From: Fimbriiglobus ruber
GTDB lineage: Bacteria > Planctomycetota > Planctomycetia > Gemmatales > Gemmataceae
Direction of reading: 5' to 3'
DNA: 64,000 bases
Assembly: GCF_002197845.1 (NCBI RefSeq)
Contig: NZ_NIDE01000004.1
Coordinates: 1,302,001 to 1,366,000, forward strand
Below the pieces are notes generated by a model, which ran no database searches, was not told the DNA's origin, and was given only the letters and a program-made list of their open reading frames with translations. Positions 7,053 to 60,434 of the stretch are shown here, one piece after another (position 1 is the stretch's first letter; each line of letters begins with the position of its first letter). Both the position numbers and the translations under genes were made by a program.

Positions 7053-7541
7053 GTGGCGACGAAATCCTTTCCTACGCGAAATGACCTGTCGGCGGAAGTG
7101 CGGGCGAAGTCGGTCGACCTGCTCAACCAGTTCCTCGCCGATTACATCGACCTCTACACCCAGATCAAGCACGCCCACTGGAACATCAAGGGCCCGCATT
7201 TCATCATGCTGCACGAGCTGTTCGACGACCTGGCGGAGGAAGTCGAAGAAGGGATCGACACGGTCGCCGAACGGGCGACGGCCCTCGGCGGGGTGGCCAA
7301 GGGGACGGCGCGACTGGCGTCCGCCGCTTCGAAGTTGCCCGAGTTCCCGATCGACACCCACACCGATTTGGCCGTCGTCGACGTGCTGGTCGCCCGGTTC
7401 GCGCACGCGGCCAAGTTCGCCCGGGCGGCGATCGAGGAGGCGGACAAGTTCGGCGACAAAGGGACGTCGGACCTGTTCACCGGGCTCTCCCGCGAGTTAG
7501 ATAAGTCCCTGTGGTTCCTCGAATCGCACCTGCAAAAGTAA
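7053..7541 (+). CDS. dps: Dps-family ferritin-like protein (DNA protection during starvation)
   Basis: 162 residues, the usual Dps length. I chose the GTG at 7053 because AGGAG at 7041-7045 precedes it at the right distance; an upstream in-frame ATG at 6993 has none. The inter-subunit ferroxidase ligands are present: His42 in KHAHWNIKG, His54 and Asp58 in MLHELFDDLAEE, Asp69 and Glu73 in GIDTVAERA, which is the standard Dps pattern. Dodecameric Dps proteins oxidise and store iron using peroxide and protect DNA in the cytosol. There is no long basic N-terminal tail for strong DNA binding. The next gene follows after 16 bases and may be co-transcribed. Confidence 0.93.
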   Translation: MATKSFPTRNDLSAEVRAKSVDLLNQFLADYIDLYTQIKHAHWNIKGPHFIMLHELFDDLAEEVEEGIDTVAERATALGGVAKGTARLASAASKLPEFPIDTHTDLAVVDVLVARFAHAAKFARAAIEEADKFGDKGTSDLFTGLSRELDKSLWFLESHLQK

Positions 7542-8334: not shown

Positions 8335-9273
8335 GTGTCATCTTTGATCCCGATCGATGCGGCACCGATTTCTGGTCGACGAGTGGGTTCTCCGAGCGAG
8401 TCGGCCGCTGGCGGCGACGAACCGGCACCTCCCGCCCCAACTGACGTTCCGCCTATGAGGTACTACGGCCCGAGTCCGCGTTGGCGGGCGATCGACTTCC
8501 GGGAAGTCTGGCTGGCGCGGGAACTGTTTTGGACGTTGGTCGTCCGGGACATCAAGGTTCGTTTTCGACAAACGCTCGTCGGCCTCGCGTGGGTGGTCCT
8601 TCAGCCGGTCGCCACGACCGCGATTTTCCTGGCGCTGTTCGGCCTCCTCGGTCGTCAACCGACCGGTGGTGAGGTTCCATACGCTCTCGTGGTCCTGTCC
8701 GGGTTGCTCCCCTGGCAACTGTTCGCCTCGGTGTTAACGAACGCGACACACAGTCTGGTGTTGAACCAGAATTTGATCGGCAAAGTGTTCTTCCCGCGGA
8801 TCATCCTGCCGTTGACGGCCGTCGGACCGGCGCTGGTCGATTTCGCCGTCGGGTGCTGTCTGCTCGCCGGCCTGATGTTGTACTTCGGCGTTTCGCCCAC
8901 GCGCTCGGTGGTGTTGTTACCGGTCGCGGTGCTGCTACCGCTGTTCGCCGCGATCGGAGTGGGCGTCTGGCTGTCCGCCCTCAACGCCATTTATCGAGAC
9001 GTCGGGTACGCGGTGCCGTTTCTGCTCCAGATCGGGTTCTTTGTCAGCCCGGTCGTGTACGCCACGAGTGCACTGATCCCCGAGGAGTGGCGCGCGGTTT
9101 TTTCGCTCAATCCGATGGTCGGGGCGATCGAAGCGTTTCGGTGGGCGGTTTTCGGGCGGGGTGAGGCACCCTTTCGGTCAGCCCTGGTCGCGGTCGTCGT
9201 GATCGCCGCGGCGCTGGCGTCCGGGATGGTTTACTTCCGGCGGGTCGAAGGGTATCTCGCGGACCGGATCTGA
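8335..9273 (+). CDS. ABC transporter permease for surface polysaccharide export (Wzm/TagG type)
   Basis: 312 residues from a GTG at 8335; an ATG at 8455 (MRYYGPSPRWRAIDF) is an alternative start, and the intervening Ser/Pro-rich segment is weakly conserved in such proteins. After FREVWLARELFWTLVVRDIKVRFRQT (split here by position: residues about 52-77), typical of ABC-2 permeases that export O-antigen, teichoic acid or exopolysaccharide, come about six membrane helices including GVWLSALNAIYRDVGYAVPF, the conserved cytoplasmic loop of the Wzm family. The partner ATPase starts six bases after its stop. It forms the inner-membrane channel that exports an undecaprenyl-linked glycan. Confidence 0.9.
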   Translation: MSSLIPIDAAPISGRRVGSPSESAAGGDEPAPPAPTDVPPMRYYGPSPRWRAIDFREVWLARELFWTLVVRDIKVRFRQTLVGLAWVVLQPVATTAIFLALFGLLGRQPTGGEVPYALVVLSGLLPWQLFASVLTNATHSLVLNQNLIGKVFFPRIILPLTAVGPALVDFAVGCCLLAGLMLYFGVSPTRSVVLLPVAVLLPLFAAIGVGVWLSALNAIYRDVGYAVPFLLQIGFFVSPVVYATSALIPEEWRAVFSLNPMVGAIEAFRWAVFGRGEAPFRSALVAVVVIAAALASGMVYFRRVEGYLADRI

Positions 9274-9279
9274 GACCCC

Positions 9280-10599
9280 ATGAGCGACATCGCGATCAGC
9301 GTCGAGGGCGTGAGCAAGCAGTATCGCCGCGGGATTCCGATCGGGAACGATCGGATGACCGAGGTGCTTTCCAACCTCGGTCGCGGCCTAGTATCGGGAC
9401 CGCGACGGTGGCTGGCGCGATCGCGCCGCCCAGAGCCGTGTGTGCCGGCTGAGGCGAGTGCGGACTTTTGGGCACTCAAGGACGTCTCGTTCGACGTTCG
9501 CCGTGGCGAAGTCGTTGGCATCATCGGGCGGAACGGGGCGGGGAAAAGCACACTCCTCAAAATCTTGTCGCGGATCACCGAACCGACCGCCGGGCGGTTC
9601 GGGGTGCGCGGCCGGGTCGGAAGTTTGCTCGAAGTCGGGACCGGCTTCCATCAAGAATTGACCGGGCGGGAGAACATCTTCCTGAACGGCACCGTGCTCG
9701 GCATGAGCCGGCGCGAGGTGCTGAAGAAGTTCGACGAAATCGTAGCGTTTTCGGAGATCGAAGCGTTCCTGGATACGCCCGCGAAACGGTACAGCAGTGG
9801 TATGTACGTCCGACTCGCGTTCGCCGTGGCAGCCCACTTGGAGCCGGAAATCCTGATCGTCGACGAGGTGCTGGCGGTCGGCGACGCACGGTTCCAGAAG
9901 AAATGCCTCGGACGCCTGGGCGAGATCGCGGCCGGCGGGCGCACGGTGCTGTTCGTCAGCCACAACACCCCGGCCGTACTGACACTCTGCCACCGGGCGG
10001 TTTGGCTGTCCGACGGCCGGGTTCTCGGCTCCGGGGAAGCGAAGGACGTGGTGTCCGAGTATCTCGAACTCGGGACCGCGTCCACGAAGGAACGACACTG
10101 GGCGGGTGACGGAGCCCCCGGCGACGATCGAGTTCGCCTGCGTTCCGCGTCGGTCGCCCCGTGTGACTCGACGACCGGGACGCACCTGACGGTCGACACG
10201 GCCTTACGTTTCAGGTTCGAATTCTCGACCGCCGTTTCGGGCGCGACCTTCCACTACTGCGTGACGGTGAGCGAGACCGAACGCGGGTGCATTTTCCAGA
10301 CGCACTCGGCTGCGGTCCCATGCCCCGCCGGATTGGTCTGCGGGGAATTTGTCGTGCCCGGAGGATTATTGAACGACGGCACTTACACGGTTCGAGTGCA
10401 GGTAATGGAAGACGGGGCGAAGGTCCGGGCCGACGCCCCCGAATCACTGGTCTTTCAAATCCACGACGTGGAACGGTCCGGCGCCTGGTTCGGCAAATGG
10501 GCCGGCGCGGTTCGCCCGACGTTGGCGTGGACCGTGTCGAATGACGTCAGGCCAATTGCACACACGGATGGACCTGACGTTGGAGGACCGCATGGCTGA
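9280..10599 (+). CDS. ABC transporter ATP-binding protein for polysaccharide export (Wzt/TagH type) with C-terminal glycan-binding domain
   Basis: 439 residues. Walker A is GRNGAGKST at residues 83-91, the ABC signature region reads RYSSGMYVRLAF, Walker B is ILIVDEVLAVGD, and the switch His is in VLFVSHN. The insertion before Walker A (VLSNLGRGL and PRRWLARSRR) is typical of the Wzt/TagH group. After about residue 270 a beta-sandwich-like C-terminal domain of 150 residues resembles the Wzt C-terminal domain that recognises the non-reducing end of the exported glycan. Its 3' end overlaps the next start by eight bases, indicating a tightly coupled operon. Confidence 0.92.
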   Translation: MSDIAISVEGVSKQYRRGIPIGNDRMTEVLSNLGRGLVSGPRRWLARSRRPEPCVPAEASADFWALKDVSFDVRRGEVVGIIGRNGAGKSTLLKILSRITEPTAGRFGVRGRVGSLLEVGTGFHQELTGRENIFLNGTVLGMSRREVLKKFDEIVAFSEIEAFLDTPAKRYSSGMYVRLAFAVAAHLEPEILIVDEVLAVGDARFQKKCLGRLGEIAAGGRTVLFVSHNTPAVLTLCHRAVWLSDGRVLGSGEAKDVVSEYLELGTASTKERHWAGDGAPGDDRVRLRSASVAPCDSTTGTHLTVDTALRFRFEFSTAVSGATFHYCVTVSETERGCIFQTHSAAVPCPAGLVCGEFVVPGGLLNDGTYTVRVQVMEDGAKVRADAPESLVFQIHDVERSGAWFGKWAGAVRPTLAWTVSNDVRPIAHTDGPDVGGPHG

Positions 10600-33948: not shown

Positions 33949-34215
33949 ATGGAAACGGTGATCCGTAACGTCGGCGATCTCGACACCAAAGACCGCTCGG
34001 CTTTGGAGCGCGTGGTCGGGCATCACTTGCAGGACGGCCAGAAGGTCGTGATCCAACTCGTAAATCCTGCTGTAACTTCCCGCGAAATCGTACCCAATGT
34101 CGCGGGCACGCAGCTACCATACTGGTGTCGAGTCTACGACGGCCTGACTGACGAACAGATCGGCGATCTCGACCGAAGTATCGTCCGCTCCCAATCTAGC
34201 CGTGACATCGCCTGA
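33949..34215 (+). CDS. Probable antitoxin of a VapBC-like pair
   Basis: 88 residues, beginning METVIRNVGDLDTKDRSALERVVG. No DNA-binding family is clearly recognisable, but its size, its position one base before the PIN-domain toxin gene and the matching orientation are those of a type II antitoxin. The early part reads as a helix-rich segment with D-R-x-A-L-E, followed by a short beta stretch (QKVVIQLVNP) and an acidic tail. Antitoxins in such operons normally bind both the toxin and the operon promoter; both roles are inferred from context. Confidence 0.6.
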   Translation: METVIRNVGDLDTKDRSALERVVGHHLQDGQKVVIQLVNPAVTSREIVPNVAGTQLPYWCRVYDGLTDEQIGDLDRSIVRSQSSRDIA

Positions 34216-34216
34216 T

Positions 34217-34627
34217 ATGGACGCCGCCCTACTCGACACCGACATCCTTTCGGAAGTCATCAAGCAACGAAACGCAACGATCATCGCTAAAGCTGTTGCT
34301 TACCTCGGGCAACACGGGCCGTTCATCATTTCGGCGTTCAGCCGATTTGAAGTCCGGCGCGGCTACCTCCACAAGAACGCGGGACAGCAACTCGTCCGGT
34401 TCGCGGTGTTTTGCAGCCATTCGGTCGTCCTTCCGGTGACCGACGCCGTTTTAGATCGGGCTGCATATCTCTGGGCAGAAGCACGACACGGCGGACATTC
34501 TTGCGGTGACGCCGATCTCAGTATCGCGGCATCGGCACTCGAACACGGCCTTGTTCTCGTTACGGGCAACCTCCGCCACTTTGCCTGGGTAACCGGCCTG
34601 AAGATCGAAGACTGGCGGACCCCGTGA
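34217..34627 (+). CDS. PIN-domain toxin (VapC-like ribonuclease)
   Basis: 136 residues from the ATG at 34217, one base after the antitoxin stop; a GTG at 34202 would overlap it. The PIN acidic residues are visible: Asp in LLDTDILSEVI, Glu in SRFEVRRGY, and the later Asp pair in GHSCGDADLSIAASAL, plus LVTGNLRHF at the C-terminal strand. PIN toxins of this kind are Mg-dependent RNases that cut tRNA or rRNA and are neutralised by the antitoxin. Gene order, spacing and size fit a VapBC module. The target is unknown. Confidence 0.85.
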   Translation: MDAALLDTDILSEVIKQRNATIIAKAVAYLGQHGPFIISAFSRFEVRRGYLHKNAGQQLVRFAVFCSHSVVLPVTDAVLDRAAYLWAEARHGGHSCGDADLSIAASALEHGLVLVTGNLRHFAWVTGLKIEDWRTP

Positions 34628-57714: not shown

Positions 57715-57948
57715 ATGGCTGATACCCTTCGCGGCAAGATCACCGAAGCGGGCAACGCCGTCGGCGAAGCCGCCACCAAGGTCGGAAACAAGGTCAGCGA
57801 AAAAGCGGAAGAAGTGAAGGATTGGGCGAAGGAAAAGCTTCACCAGGCACAAAACCGGGCCGACGAAGCCGACCAATCGGCTCAACACGCCCAGAAAGAA
57901 GCGTGTGAAGACGCCAAGGCTCAAGGCGCCGACTGTCATCGCTCATAA
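57715..57948 (+). CDS. Small amphipathic helical protein (LEA/CsbD-like), 77 residues
   Basis: Start at ATG 57715 with TTAGGAGTCCAATC before it. The peptide (MADTLRGKITEAGNAVGEAA, then a repeating K-x-x-E/A pattern to the end) is almost entirely Ala/Glu/Lys/Gln and would form an amphipathic helix, as in LEA-type or CsbD-like stress proteins; the two Cys near the C-terminus are unusual for those. A hydrophilic stress-protectant role is plausible. It is a single-gene unit closed by a strong terminator. Confidence 0.7.
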   Translation: MADTLRGKITEAGNAVGEAATKVGNKVSEKAEEVKDWAKEKLHQAQNRADEADQSAQHAQKEACEDAKAQGADCHRS

Positions 57949-57975
57949 TCATAATGTCTGAGTTCACGACTCGCG

Positions 57976-58008
57976 AAGACCCGCCCCTTCTGGGGCGGGT
58001 CTTTGTTT
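57976..58008 (+). terminator. Intrinsic terminator
   Basis: AAGACCCGCCCC pairs with GGGGCGGGTCTT around a TTCT loop and is followed by TGTTT on the plus strand, 28 bases after the stop. It also lies 36 bases from the 3' end of the convergent HD-Pnk gene and may act in both directions. Confidence 0.9.
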
Positions 58009-58043: not shown

Positions 58044-59189
58044 TCACCCGACGACATATTCGACCCGATGGGCCTCGGCCGCCGTCGGCACGTCGAGTTT
58101 ATCGAACAATCGCTCCCACACGCTCTCGGGGACGCGGGCCGTCCGCCCGCGGTTTCGCCAGCGAATTTCCGCGATCGACGGTTCCAGGTAGACGATCCGC
58201 ACCCGCGCGTTGTACGCGGCGGCGAGGTCGATGATCTTCCCGCGCAACATCCGGGACACGTTCGTCGTATTCCAGACGAACGACGTGCCGGCGCGTAGGA
58301 ACTCTTTTGCGCGGTCGTAAGCGACGACGACAACGCCCGACTGGTTGTCCCCCGGGCTGACGTCCAGTTCGGCACGGATGTCGTCCAGGGAAATCGCCGG
58401 CACATCCGGGGCGTGGGTGGCCGCCCAGGTCGTCTTTCCGCTCCCCGGCAACCCGCAAACGACAACCACCTCGGCCCGCGTGTCGTCGAACCGGTGCAGG
58501 GTCGGGTGGGCCGATTCCGTGCGGAAGTACGCGAACCGGCTGTGATCGTTCGCGAACGCGCGGGGGCTGGACCAGCATTCCCATTCGCGGCAGAATTCGG
58601 GGAACAACCCGATCCGGTCCTGCGTATCGTTCCCGACCGTGCAGACGCGGCCGCGGTGGTCGGCGTCGGCCAGGATCGTGAGCAGGTCGAACCGCGTGGT
58701 CAGGCTCGCCCGGATCACGTCCCGCGCGGCGTGCGGCTTGTCCAGGTAGTTGGCCGGCAACCCGTGCCAGCGGACGAGCGCGAGGATCTGCTCGCGGACC
58801 TCGAACGGCGTGCCGTGGTCGCCGAACGCCGGGTCGTCGGCCAGAATCCGCCGTGCGTGGTACACGCCCTTGACCGCATGGCCCGGAGACCGGACGCGGC
58901 CGTCGTCCTCGATTCGGGTACAAGCGGGCTTGGCGATGTCGTGAAGCAACGTGCCGGCGAACACGACGTGCCGGTCGGGTTCCGGAAGTTCCCGGAACGC
59001 CGGCAGCGCAGCCAACTCGTTCAGGACCATGCCCAGGTGCGTGAGGACGTCCCCTTCGGCGTGGAAGATCGGGTCTTGCGGACACTCGCCGAGCGGCCGA
59101 AGCCACGGGAAGGTGTCGATCAACGCGGGCATGTCCACGCGCCAGTCCGGACCAGTCGGGCACCCGGGGCAAGTCCACTCGGCGGTCAT
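58044..59189 (-). CDS. HD-Pnk: HD-domain phosphoesterase fused to a P-loop polynucleotide kinase
   Basis: 381 residues from the ATG at 59187-59189; a GTG at 59211-59213 is an alternative and neither has a clear ribosome site. The N-terminal HD domain shows EGDVLTHLGM (His51) and LLHDIAKP (His83, Asp84). The C-terminal kinase has the P-loop GLPGSGKT at residues 246-253, SLDDIRAELD with the substrate Asp, and an R-W-R-N-R-G lid-like segment near the end. This order is that of the HD-Pnk enzymes characterised from Runella, in which the HD domain removes 2',3'-cyclic or 2'/3'-phosphates and the kinase phosphorylates 5'-OH ends. It lies 68 bases after the RNA ligase gene, so the pair can heal and seal broken RNA. 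Confidence 0.88.
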   Translation of the reverse strand: MTAEWTCPGCPTGPDWRVDMPALIDTFPWLRPLGECPQDPIFHAEGDVLTHLGMVLNELAALPAFRELPEPDRHVVFAGTLLHDIAKPACTRIEDDGRVRSPGHAVKGVYHARRILADDPAFGDHGTPFEVREQILALVRWHGLPANYLDKPHAARDVIRASLTTRFDLLTILADADHRGRVCTVGNDTQDRIGLFPEFCREWECWSSPRAFANDHSRFAYFRTESAHPTLHRFDDTRAEVVVVCGLPGSGKTTWAATHAPDVPAISLDDIRAELDVSPGDNQSGVVVVAYDRAKEFLRAGTSFVWNTTNVSRMLRGKIIDLAAAYNARVRIVYLEPSIAEIRWRNRGRTARVPESVWERLFDKLDVPTAAEAHRVEYVVG

Positions 59190-59257
59190 CGGCGCACCAT
59201 GAGAAGAAACCACGCCCGCGGTTCACGCCCCGGACGTTCAGGATAAAGAGCAACTTT

Positions 59258-60052
59258 TCACGACCCGACCCGATCGATCCCGGCAAACAAGTCCACCCCG
59301 TCCGCGAGGCGGTTCGGGATGAGCGGGCGATCCTGCCAGTGACCGTCTGCGGTGACGAGTTGCTGGAACTCGGCCCGGACGAACTTATACCGGCCGACGA
59401 CCTCGCCACCTTCCTCGACTTTGACGTACAGCCCCTCCATCGTGCCGGACACGTCGGACTGGCGGACGGCGCGGTCGACGTCCCAGCCGAGCCGGGCGAC
59501 GTCGTCGCGGAGCCGGGTCGCCGCCCGGTCGGTGGCGAAGTACGAGGGGCCGACGAAGGCGCGGAGTGCGTCTTCGCCGGGGAACTCGCCCGCGTACAAG
59601 ACCTTCACCGGCACGTGCGGCACGTCCTTGAGCAGGGCCGCCCGGCGCGGGGTGTCGAGGAACGTGCCGGTCTCGGTGTCGAGGACGTCGAACTCCATGA
59701 AGTAGTGCGGCAGCGCATCGTAGTAAACCGTGTGCTTGGCGTACAACCATTCGCCGTACACGACATACCGCCCGCCGATCGCGTCGAACAGGCGGTCGCC
59801 GACCGTGGCGGCCCACTGCTTGAACAGGTTGAACTGCTTTTCCCGCGGCCCGCCGACCAGGTAGTGGCCGCGGCTCTGAAGAAGGAGCCCGGCGTCCGCG
59901 TCGAAGCTGAGCCCGCAGTTCGCCCCGTCCATCTTCTCTTCGATGACGACGTGCCGACCCGCGAGCGCGGCCATCGGCACCGCGTCCAGGTCTTCGTCCC
60001 CAACCTGCAGGCGCGACCCCGAGAGGTGTTGCGTCCGCGGGTATTTAAACAT
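59258..60052 (-). CDS. ATP-dependent RNA ligase (Rnl-type nucleotidyltransferase)
   Basis: 264 residues starting MFKYPRTQHLSGSRLQ; ATG at 60050-60052, with a GTG nine bases upstream as alternative. Ligase motif I is EEKMDGAN with the AMP-accepting Lys40, motif III is VVYGEWLYAKH, motif IV EGLYVKVEEGG, and motif V GRYKFVRAEF, each in the usual order and spacing. The protein lacks an OB fold and a DNA-ligase type C-terminal domain, pointing to the Rnl2/Rnl5-like RNA ligases. Such enzymes join 3'-OH and 5'-PO4 ends, precisely those that the neighbouring HD-Pnk would make. The long upstream extension of the frame is open but looks non-coding. Confidence 0.88.
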   Translation of the reverse strand: MFKYPRTQHLSGSRLQVGDEDLDAVPMAALAGRHVVIEEKMDGANCGLSFDADAGLLLQSRGHYLVGGPREKQFNLFKQWAATVGDRLFDAIGGRYVVYGEWLYAKHTVYYDALPHYFMEFDVLDTETGTFLDTPRRAALLKDVPHVPVKVLYAGEFPGEDALRAFVGPSYFATDRAATRLRDDVARLGWDVDRAVRQSDVSGTMEGLYVKVEEGGEVVGRYKFVRAEFQQLVTADGHWQDRPLIPNRLADGVDLFAGIDRVGS

Positions 60053-60434
60053 CGTGCGCACGACCGATACTCCGGGCGACTTGCCACCGACGAGGTGACG
60101 ATTTCCCAGGGACACAAGTTCGGCGGTGCGGGTTCGTCCGGGCGAACCCACACCATTTCCCCTCACCTGCCGGGGCGATTTATTGCGCTTTTTGCGCTCT
60201 CTGCCGTATTTTTGGGACCGAGCATGGACGACGGCACCAGTGTAAGAGAAGGGGCCCGCGGTGACCGCCGGTATGGTGTGGTGGCGCGTTTCCAACGTGC
60301 CGATACCGCTCGGACACGTTGGGGCTCGTTGGAAACGCGCCACCACAACCGTGTACGCAGGATAATTACACTTTTAAACTTGATCTCTCACTCCTCACTG
60401 CGTTCAATAGCGAAGTCCAGAAAATTACTCTTAC
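60053..60434. other. Intergenic region containing palindrome family B
   Basis: About 380 bases between the divergent RNA ligase gene and the secreted-protein gene. It contains the long palindrome at 60275-60350; elsewhere no gene was seen. Confidence 0.5.
60275..60350. repeat. Long palindrome (REP/MITE-like), family B
   Basis: GGTGTGGTGGCGCGTTTCCA plus ACG at 60275-60297 is complementary to 60327-60350 (CGTTGGAAACGCGCCACCAC plus AACC) with one mismatch-like offset, and the loop holds a second complementary pair around CCAACGTG/CACGTTGG. Sequence is unrelated to the other two palindromes in the window. Confidence 0.85.

What the first reader, a model, noticed from the sequence alone, without database searches (positions are those of the whole stretch)
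58044..60052. Two-gene nucleic-acid repair cassette: RNA ligase plus HD-Pnk end-healing enzyme
Seen: an Rnl-type ligase with motifs I (Lys40), III, IV and V, and 68 bases later on the same strand a protein with an HD phosphoesterase domain followed by a P-loop kinase. Known: HD-Pnk of Runella heals 2',3'-cyclic-phosphate and 5'-OH ends. Inference: the pair forms a complete heal-and-seal pathway for RNA cleaved by ribotoxins, comparable in logic to T4 Pnkp-Rnl but with a different phosphatase module. A VapC-like RNase lies 24 kb away, although no link is shown. The pairing in planctomycetes seems little studied.
Basis: partly seen in the sequence, partly recalled or inferred. Interest (0 to 1): 0.75.

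Follow-up and report, generated by a model that had tools for sequence, protein, structure and literature searches.

The report
RNA ligase beside end-healing enzyme
A planctomycete carries two neighbouring genes, a small RNA-ligase-like enzyme and an HD-Pnk enzyme that cleans broken nucleic-acid ends; the pair is real and conserved across many bacterial phyla, but the same gene pair has been known for two decades from Deinococcus radiodurans, so this is a new member of a known kind.

Summary
On the minus strand lie a 264-aa PF09414 RNA-ligase-type protein (59258-60052, Lys40) and, 68 bases downstream, an HD + P-loop kinase protein (58044-59189). All diagnostic residues are present; AlphaFold2 models are confident, and the ligase model matches RNA ligases first.

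The pairing is not random. In 95 genomes of the family the ligase occurs almost only with HD-Pnk (25 both, 1 ligase alone, 8 HD-Pnk alone, 61 neither); in 9 genomes both are kept although not adjacent. In 80 named HD-Pnk loci a ligase homologue is adjacent in 70. With plasmid loci, the pair spans about eleven phyla.

"Little studied" is wrong: it is the DRB0100/DRB0098 pair of the Deinococcus radiodurans operon DRB0100-0099-0098, described in 2005-2007, here without the middle PARG gene.

The likely mechanism is heal (HD: 3' phosphate or 2',3'-cyclic phosphate; Pnk: 5'-OH), then seal. RNA versus DNA as substrate is open; the ribotoxin link and the VapC hint have no support here. Relatives also show a methyltransferase-ligase-HD-Pnk operon and an RNA-repair gene island; neither is in this window.

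The parts
59258..60052 (-). minimal ATP-dependent RNA-ligase-type nucleotidyltransferase, 264 aa, Lys40 nucleophile; first gene of the pair
   Evidence: PF09414 E 5e-35; invariant motifs; AlphaFold2 pLDDT 91.8; Foldseek top hits are RNA ligases; DRB0100 Lys40 aligns with Lys40
58044..59189 (-). HD-Pnk: N-terminal HD phosphoesterase domain plus C-terminal P-loop polynucleotide kinase domain, 381 aa from ATG 59189 (alternative start GTG 59213)
   Evidence: PF01966 and PF13671 over cut-off; invariant HD and kinase residues; AlphaFold2 pLDDT 95.9; kinase half matches polynucleotide kinases in PDB
59190..59257 (-). 68-base gap between ligase stop and HD-Pnk ATG; same strand, no consensus sigma-70 promoter found

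Best explanation
A two-gene heal-and-seal cassette for broken nucleic acid, most likely RNA. The HD domain of HD-Pnk removes the 3' phosphate or 2',3'-cyclic phosphate, its P-loop domain phosphorylates the 5'-OH, and the small ligase adenylates itself on Lys40, transfers AMP to the new 5'-phosphate and joins it to the 3'-OH. The ligase has a nucleotidyltransferase core and no room for a long C-terminal or N-terminal OB domain, so it may work bound to HD-Pnk or depend on it for substrate. Shown: both proteins, intact catalytic residues, fold class, conserved pairing, order and strand. Inferred: the enzymatic steps (from homologues), complex formation, RNA rather than DNA, and the biological trigger.
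For: Families and residues. Ligase fold closest to TbREL1, T4 Rnl2, archaeal Rnl and Naegleria Rnl; conventional DNA ligases rank lower. Co-occurrence in the family: 25 both, 1 ligase only (a 65%-complete genome), 8 HD-Pnk only, 61 neither; Fisher p 6e-15, and 1.3e-5 when collapsed to genera. Both genes are kept in 9 genomes where they are not adjacent. In the phylum sample all 11 other genomes with an HD-Pnk at E < 1e-70 also have the ligase. Of 80 named HD-Pnk loci, 70 have an adjacent ligase homologue. In 89 of 89 pairs with a strong ligase match the ligase is on the HD-Pnk strand; distance matrices of the two proteins correlate with r = 0.93 against at most 0.31 in 2000 permutations, though shared species history contributes. 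DRB0098 has 5'-kinase activity and DRB0100 adenylyltransferase activity in vitro (PMC1997131).
Against: No activity was tested. Seven genera of the family have HD-Pnk without this ligase, so HD-Pnk is also kept without it. The counterpart DRB0100 did not seal DNA alone (PMC1997131), showed no DNA or RNA ligation when purified according to PMC1978522, and is said to be active only with DRB0098 and PprA (PMC5128194). HD-site mutants of DRB0098 did not lose 3'-phosphatase activity in the 2007 assay, where E. coli contamination was suspected (PMC1997131).
Confidence: 0.68

Rival explanations
1. The cassette repairs DNA breaks with 3'-phosphate and 5'-OH ends (for example after radiation, desiccation or oxidation), as proposed for the Deinococcus operon, and the ligase is a DNA or dual DNA/RNA ligase.
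For: The Deinococcus operon is induced by irradiation and described as a double-strand-break repair complex (PMC1274311, PMC1997131); DRB0100 is called LigB and reported in a PprA complex (PMC3893189, PMC5128194). Kinase folds closest to the HD-Pnk kinase include mammalian PNKP bound to DNA.
Against: The ligase falls in PF09414 and its model ranks RNA ligases first. DRB0100 did not join DNA alone (PMC1997131) and its disruption did not change radiation resistance (PMC1978522). In three related planctomycete genomes the pair sits beside Hen1, Pnkp and RlaP genes, a setting of RNA repair.
Confidence: 0.22
2. The ligase has lost or changed its sealing role and adenylates another substrate; HD-Pnk works alone or with another ligase of the genome, and the neighbourhood reflects shared regulation only.
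For: The protein is short with no OB or long C-terminal domain. Eight family genomes keep HD-Pnk without this ligase; two RtcB and two OB-containing RNA ligases exist in the same genome.
Against: All ligase motifs are intact and invariant; strong co-retention even when unlinked; constant gene order across phyla.
Confidence: 0.1

Closest known systems
Deinococcus radiodurans operon DRB0100-DRB0099-DRB0098 (LigB/DdrP, PARG, HD-Pnk)
   Same: Same gene order and strand; ligase Lys40 aligns with DRB0100 Lys40, the HD pair with DRB0098 H81/D82, and DRB0098 kinase residue R371 with R345; about 30% identity for both proteins.
   Different: No PARG gene between the two in the window; the planctomycete ligase is 264 aa against 210 aa.
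Runella slithyformis HD-Pnk (recalled: Munir and Shuman, J Bacteriol 2017; text not held)
   Same: Domain order HD then P-loop kinase. I recall that paper stating that HD-Pnk genes are often in an operon with a putative ATP-dependent ligase.
   Different: Sequence of Runella not compared here.
Bacterial Pnkp1-Rnl-Hen1 (PMC4411300) and Pnkp-Hen1 RNA repair systems
   Same: Heal-and-seal logic with a kinase, a 3'-end phosphoesterase and an ATP-dependent ligase.
   Different: 3'-end healing by an HD domain instead of the phosphatase of Pnkp (metallophosphoesterase in a TIGR04075 Pnkp); no Hen1 next to it.
T4 Pnkp with T4 RNA ligases
   Same: Separate kinase/phosphatase and ligase proteins; ligase model resembles T4 Rnl2.
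   Different: HD phosphoesterase at the N-terminus instead of the C-terminal phosphatase domain of T4 Pnkp (T4 detail recalled).
DraRnl (Rnl5, DRB0094; TIGR02306)
   Same: PF09414 core.
   Different: DraRnl has an N-terminal domain before its core that the window ligase lacks. Two OB-containing PF09414 ligases are elsewhere in this genome.

Membership tests
HD-Pnk | N-terminal HD phosphoesterase domain with conserved metal-binding residues | tested here: met
   PF01966 over cut-off; H43, H51, H83-D84, H104, D177 invariant in 41 homologues
HD-Pnk | C-terminal P-loop polynucleotide kinase with catalytic Asp-Arg and lid Arg | tested here: met
   PF13671; G251-K252, D269, R272, R316, R349 invariant; fold matches polynucleotide kinases
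HD-Pnk | Activity on 5'-OH and 2',3'-cyclic-phosphate ends | not testable with these tools
   needs purified protein
PF09414 RNA ligase | KxDG motif I and motifs III, IV, V | tested here: met
   invariant columns; PF09414 121.6 bits
PF09414 RNA ligase | RNA-ligase fold of the nucleotidyltransferase core | tested here: met
   Foldseek: TbREL1, T4 Rnl2, archaeal and Naegleria RNA ligases first; Aquifex putative DNA ligase at ranks 28-29
PF09414 RNA ligase | Seals RNA | not testable with these tools
   needs assay
Rnl5 (DraRnl, TIGR02306) | N-terminal domain before the nucleotidyltransferase core; TIGR02306 match | tested here: not met
   motif I lies at residue 40 and NCBIfam gives no match, while DRB0094 itself matches TIGR02306
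Deinococcus DRB0100-0098 type repair operon | DRB0100-type ligase upstream of HD-Pnk on the same strand | tested here: met
Deinococcus DRB0100-0098 type repair operon | PARG (TIGR02452) gene between them | tested here: not met
   68-base gap only
Pnkp/Hen1 RNA repair | Hen1 methyltransferase in the locus | tested here: not met
   no Hen1 among the neighbouring genes

The most novel reading that the evidence does not exclude
The small ligase is an obligate partner that is inactive or weak until HD-Pnk hands over the healed end, so that the pair forms a two-subunit RNA repair machine separate from Pnkp-Hen1; in related phyla it gains a methyltransferase as third subunit (seen in 15 relatives, not in this window) that could mark or protect the repaired site.
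Probability: 0.25. Interest if true: 0.55.

Novelty: new member of a known kind. Interest (0 to 1): 0.33.

Why it matters
It shows that the Deinococcus ligase/HD-Pnk pair is a widespread bacterial module, not a radiation-resistance speciality. That makes the old puzzle of the inactive purified DRB0100 testable with homologues from many phyla, including the question whether the module acts on RNA or DNA.

Tried and rejected
Rnl5/DraRnl identity for the ligase: rejected (no N-terminal domain, no TIGR02306 match). mRNA-capping or tRNA-modifying enzyme: no such family match for the ligase. Defence-system membership: no PADLOC match. VapC link: a PIN-domain gene about 23 kb away with unrelated genes between. 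Hen1 identity for the extra methyltransferase of relatives: weak only (E 3e-5 to 4e-3, far under the cut-off), better matches to other methyltransferases, so left as an unassigned class I methyltransferase. Two alignments were too diverse for the genome scan. The texts of three key papers were not held. The single-sequence PDB search of the ligase found nothing; the profile did.

Full report
Observation. The ligase runs 59258-60052 (-), 264 aa, with the lysine of EEKMDG at position 40. The HD-Pnk runs 58044-59213 (-) from a GTG, but homologues start near the ATG at 59189, which gives the 68-base gap. Pfam gives PF09414 RNA_ligase (E 5e-35), PF01966 HD (2.3e-5) and PF13671 AAA_33 (1.6e-24), all above the curated cut-offs. 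NCBIfam has no model for the ligase and only distant hits for the HD-Pnk; PHROGs holds an unnamed family that covers nearly the whole HD-Pnk (phrog_6931).

Residues and fold. Over 43 ligase homologues K40, D42-G43, R61, H63, E101, E206-G207, K223, R226 and H238 are invariant. Over 41 HD-Pnks the HD residues H43, H51, H83-D84, H104, D177 and the kinase residues G251-K252, D269, R272, R316, R349 are invariant. The AlphaFold2 models have mean pLDDT 91.8 and 95.9. Foldseek of the ligase lists trypanosome RNA editing ligase 1, T4 RNA ligase 2, archaeal and Naegleria RNA ligases first; a putative Aquifex DNA ligase appears at ranks 28-29. TM-scores are near 0.5, so only the core is shared. The last motif V residue (R226) lies 38 residues before the C-terminus, which leaves no room for the longer C-terminal domain of T4 Rnl2 (size recalled), and motif I at residue 40 leaves none for an N-terminal OB domain.

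Pairing. In 95 genomes of the family the ligase (E <= 1e-6) is found in 26 and HD-Pnk (E <= 1e-20) in 33; 25 have both, one (65% complete) has the ligase alone, eight have HD-Pnk alone. Fisher p is 6e-15 over genomes and 1.3e-5 over genera. Genomes are related, so the genus figure is the safer one; within the largest genus the split is 10 both, 1 ligase only, 8 neither. By their coordinates the two genes are adjacent in 16 of the 25 and not adjacent in 9 (some of these on separate contigs of drafts), and they are still kept together in the genome, which argues for a shared function rather than mere linkage. In the phylum sample all 11 other genomes with an HD-Pnk at E < 1e-70 also have the ligase. 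A scan of named genomes kept the 80 loci most like the query; 70 have a ligase homologue next to HD-Pnk, 65 of them upstream on the same strand and five, all myxobacterial, with a diverged ligase on the opposite strand. This set is biased to close relatives and to cyanobacteria. The phyla named there include Cyanobacteriota, Planctomycetota, Chloroflexota, Acidobacteriota, Actinomycetota, Bacillota, Bacteroidota, Myxococcota and Latescibacterota; plasmid records add Deinococcota and Pseudomonadota. In 89 pairs with a strong ligase match the ligase is always on the HD-Pnk strand, and the distance matrices of the two proteins correlate with r = 0.93 (permutations at most 0.31). Shared species history explains part of that, and a few genomes are in this set twice.

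What is known. The Deinococcus radiodurans plasmid locus shows the same order: RNA ligase family protein, TIGR02452 (PARG), HD-Pnk. DRB0100 Lys40 aligns with Lys40 of the window ligase and DRB0098 H81/D82 with H83/D84. The operon is described in PMC1274311 (2005) and PMC1997131 (2007), with kinase activity of DRB0098 and adenylyltransferase activity of DRB0100; PMC11833690 (2025) adds the PARG. PMC5128194 reports that DRB0100 is active as a ligase only with DRB0098 and PprA; PMC1978522 finds no radiation phenotype of its disruption. From memory, Munir and Shuman (2017) described Runella HD-Pnk and noted that such genes are often in an operon with a putative ATP-dependent ligase; that text was not held. 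So the pairing is known; what this window adds is a planctomycete member and the systematic co-occurrence figures.

Mechanism. Heal and seal is the best reading (about 0.68): HD for the 3' end, Pnk for the 5' end, ligase for joining. RNA is favoured by the ligase family and fold and by neighbourhoods of relatives, but DNA is a live rival (0.22), mostly on the Deinococcus literature. A ribotoxin trigger is untested.

Wider setting. The same genome has two OB-containing PF09414 ligases, another small PF09414 ligase and at least one ATP-dependent DNA-ligase-like protein, two RtcB, four RlaP and a Pnkp whose kinase part and remainder read in different frames. In three genomes of one related genus the pair sits next to Hen1 and Pnkp genes and two RlaP genes; in two of these a Thg1-like gene and a partial kinase gene lie a few kilobases upstream. 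An association of Thg1 with polynucleotide kinase and RNA ligase genes is already described (PMC2904730). In 15 relatives from several phyla a class I methyltransferase lies directly upstream of the ligase; its family is unresolved.

Noticed in passing
L080, L095, L096, L097, L099, L101, L168, L185, L188, L196, L201, L217, L218, L220, L224: A class I methyltransferase gene (motif EVLEH...NPEH) lies directly upstream of the ligase in 15 loci from several phyla, giving a methyltransferase-ligase-HD-Pnk operon; only weak similarity to Hen1 among many methyltransferases.
   Followed up: partly
L103 3506-16335, L104 8110-16742, L106 1924-16561: RNA-repair gene island in one planctomycete genus: ligase, HD-Pnk, Hen1, Pnkp and two RlaP genes in a row, with Thg1 and a partial kinase upstream in two of the three.
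   Followed up: partly
L106 7229-9810: The HD-Pnk match is split: its start matches at 7229-7342 and the rest at 8809-9810, about 1.47 kb apart, as if something were inserted.
   Followed up: no
window 60278-60346: Inverted repeat around CGTTGGAAACGCGCCACCAC upstream of the ligase; 40 matches with up to 2 mismatches in the genome against 0 for the reversed control, often as facing pairs: a dispersed palindromic repeat.
   Followed up: partly
window 57970-58005: GC-rich hairpin (GACCCGCCCC...GGGGCGGGTC) between HD-Pnk and the small gene at 57715-57948, read by eye; the terminator scan did not list it.
   Followed up: no
L206, L208, L209, L211, L216: In Sorangium and Minicystis a diverged ligase homologue lies on the opposite strand next to HD-Pnk.
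   Followed up: no
G000:C2:759961-762560: Bacterial Pnkp homologue of this genome whose kinase part and remaining domains are read in different frames, with one stop in the kinase part.
   Followed up: no
window 33949-34627: PIN-domain (VapC-like) gene with a small upstream ORF, a likely toxin-antitoxin pair, about 23 kb from the cassette.
   Followed up: partly
L144 5092-7110: The ligase-HD-Pnk pair is also on a Pseudomonas aeruginosa plasmid.
   Followed up: no
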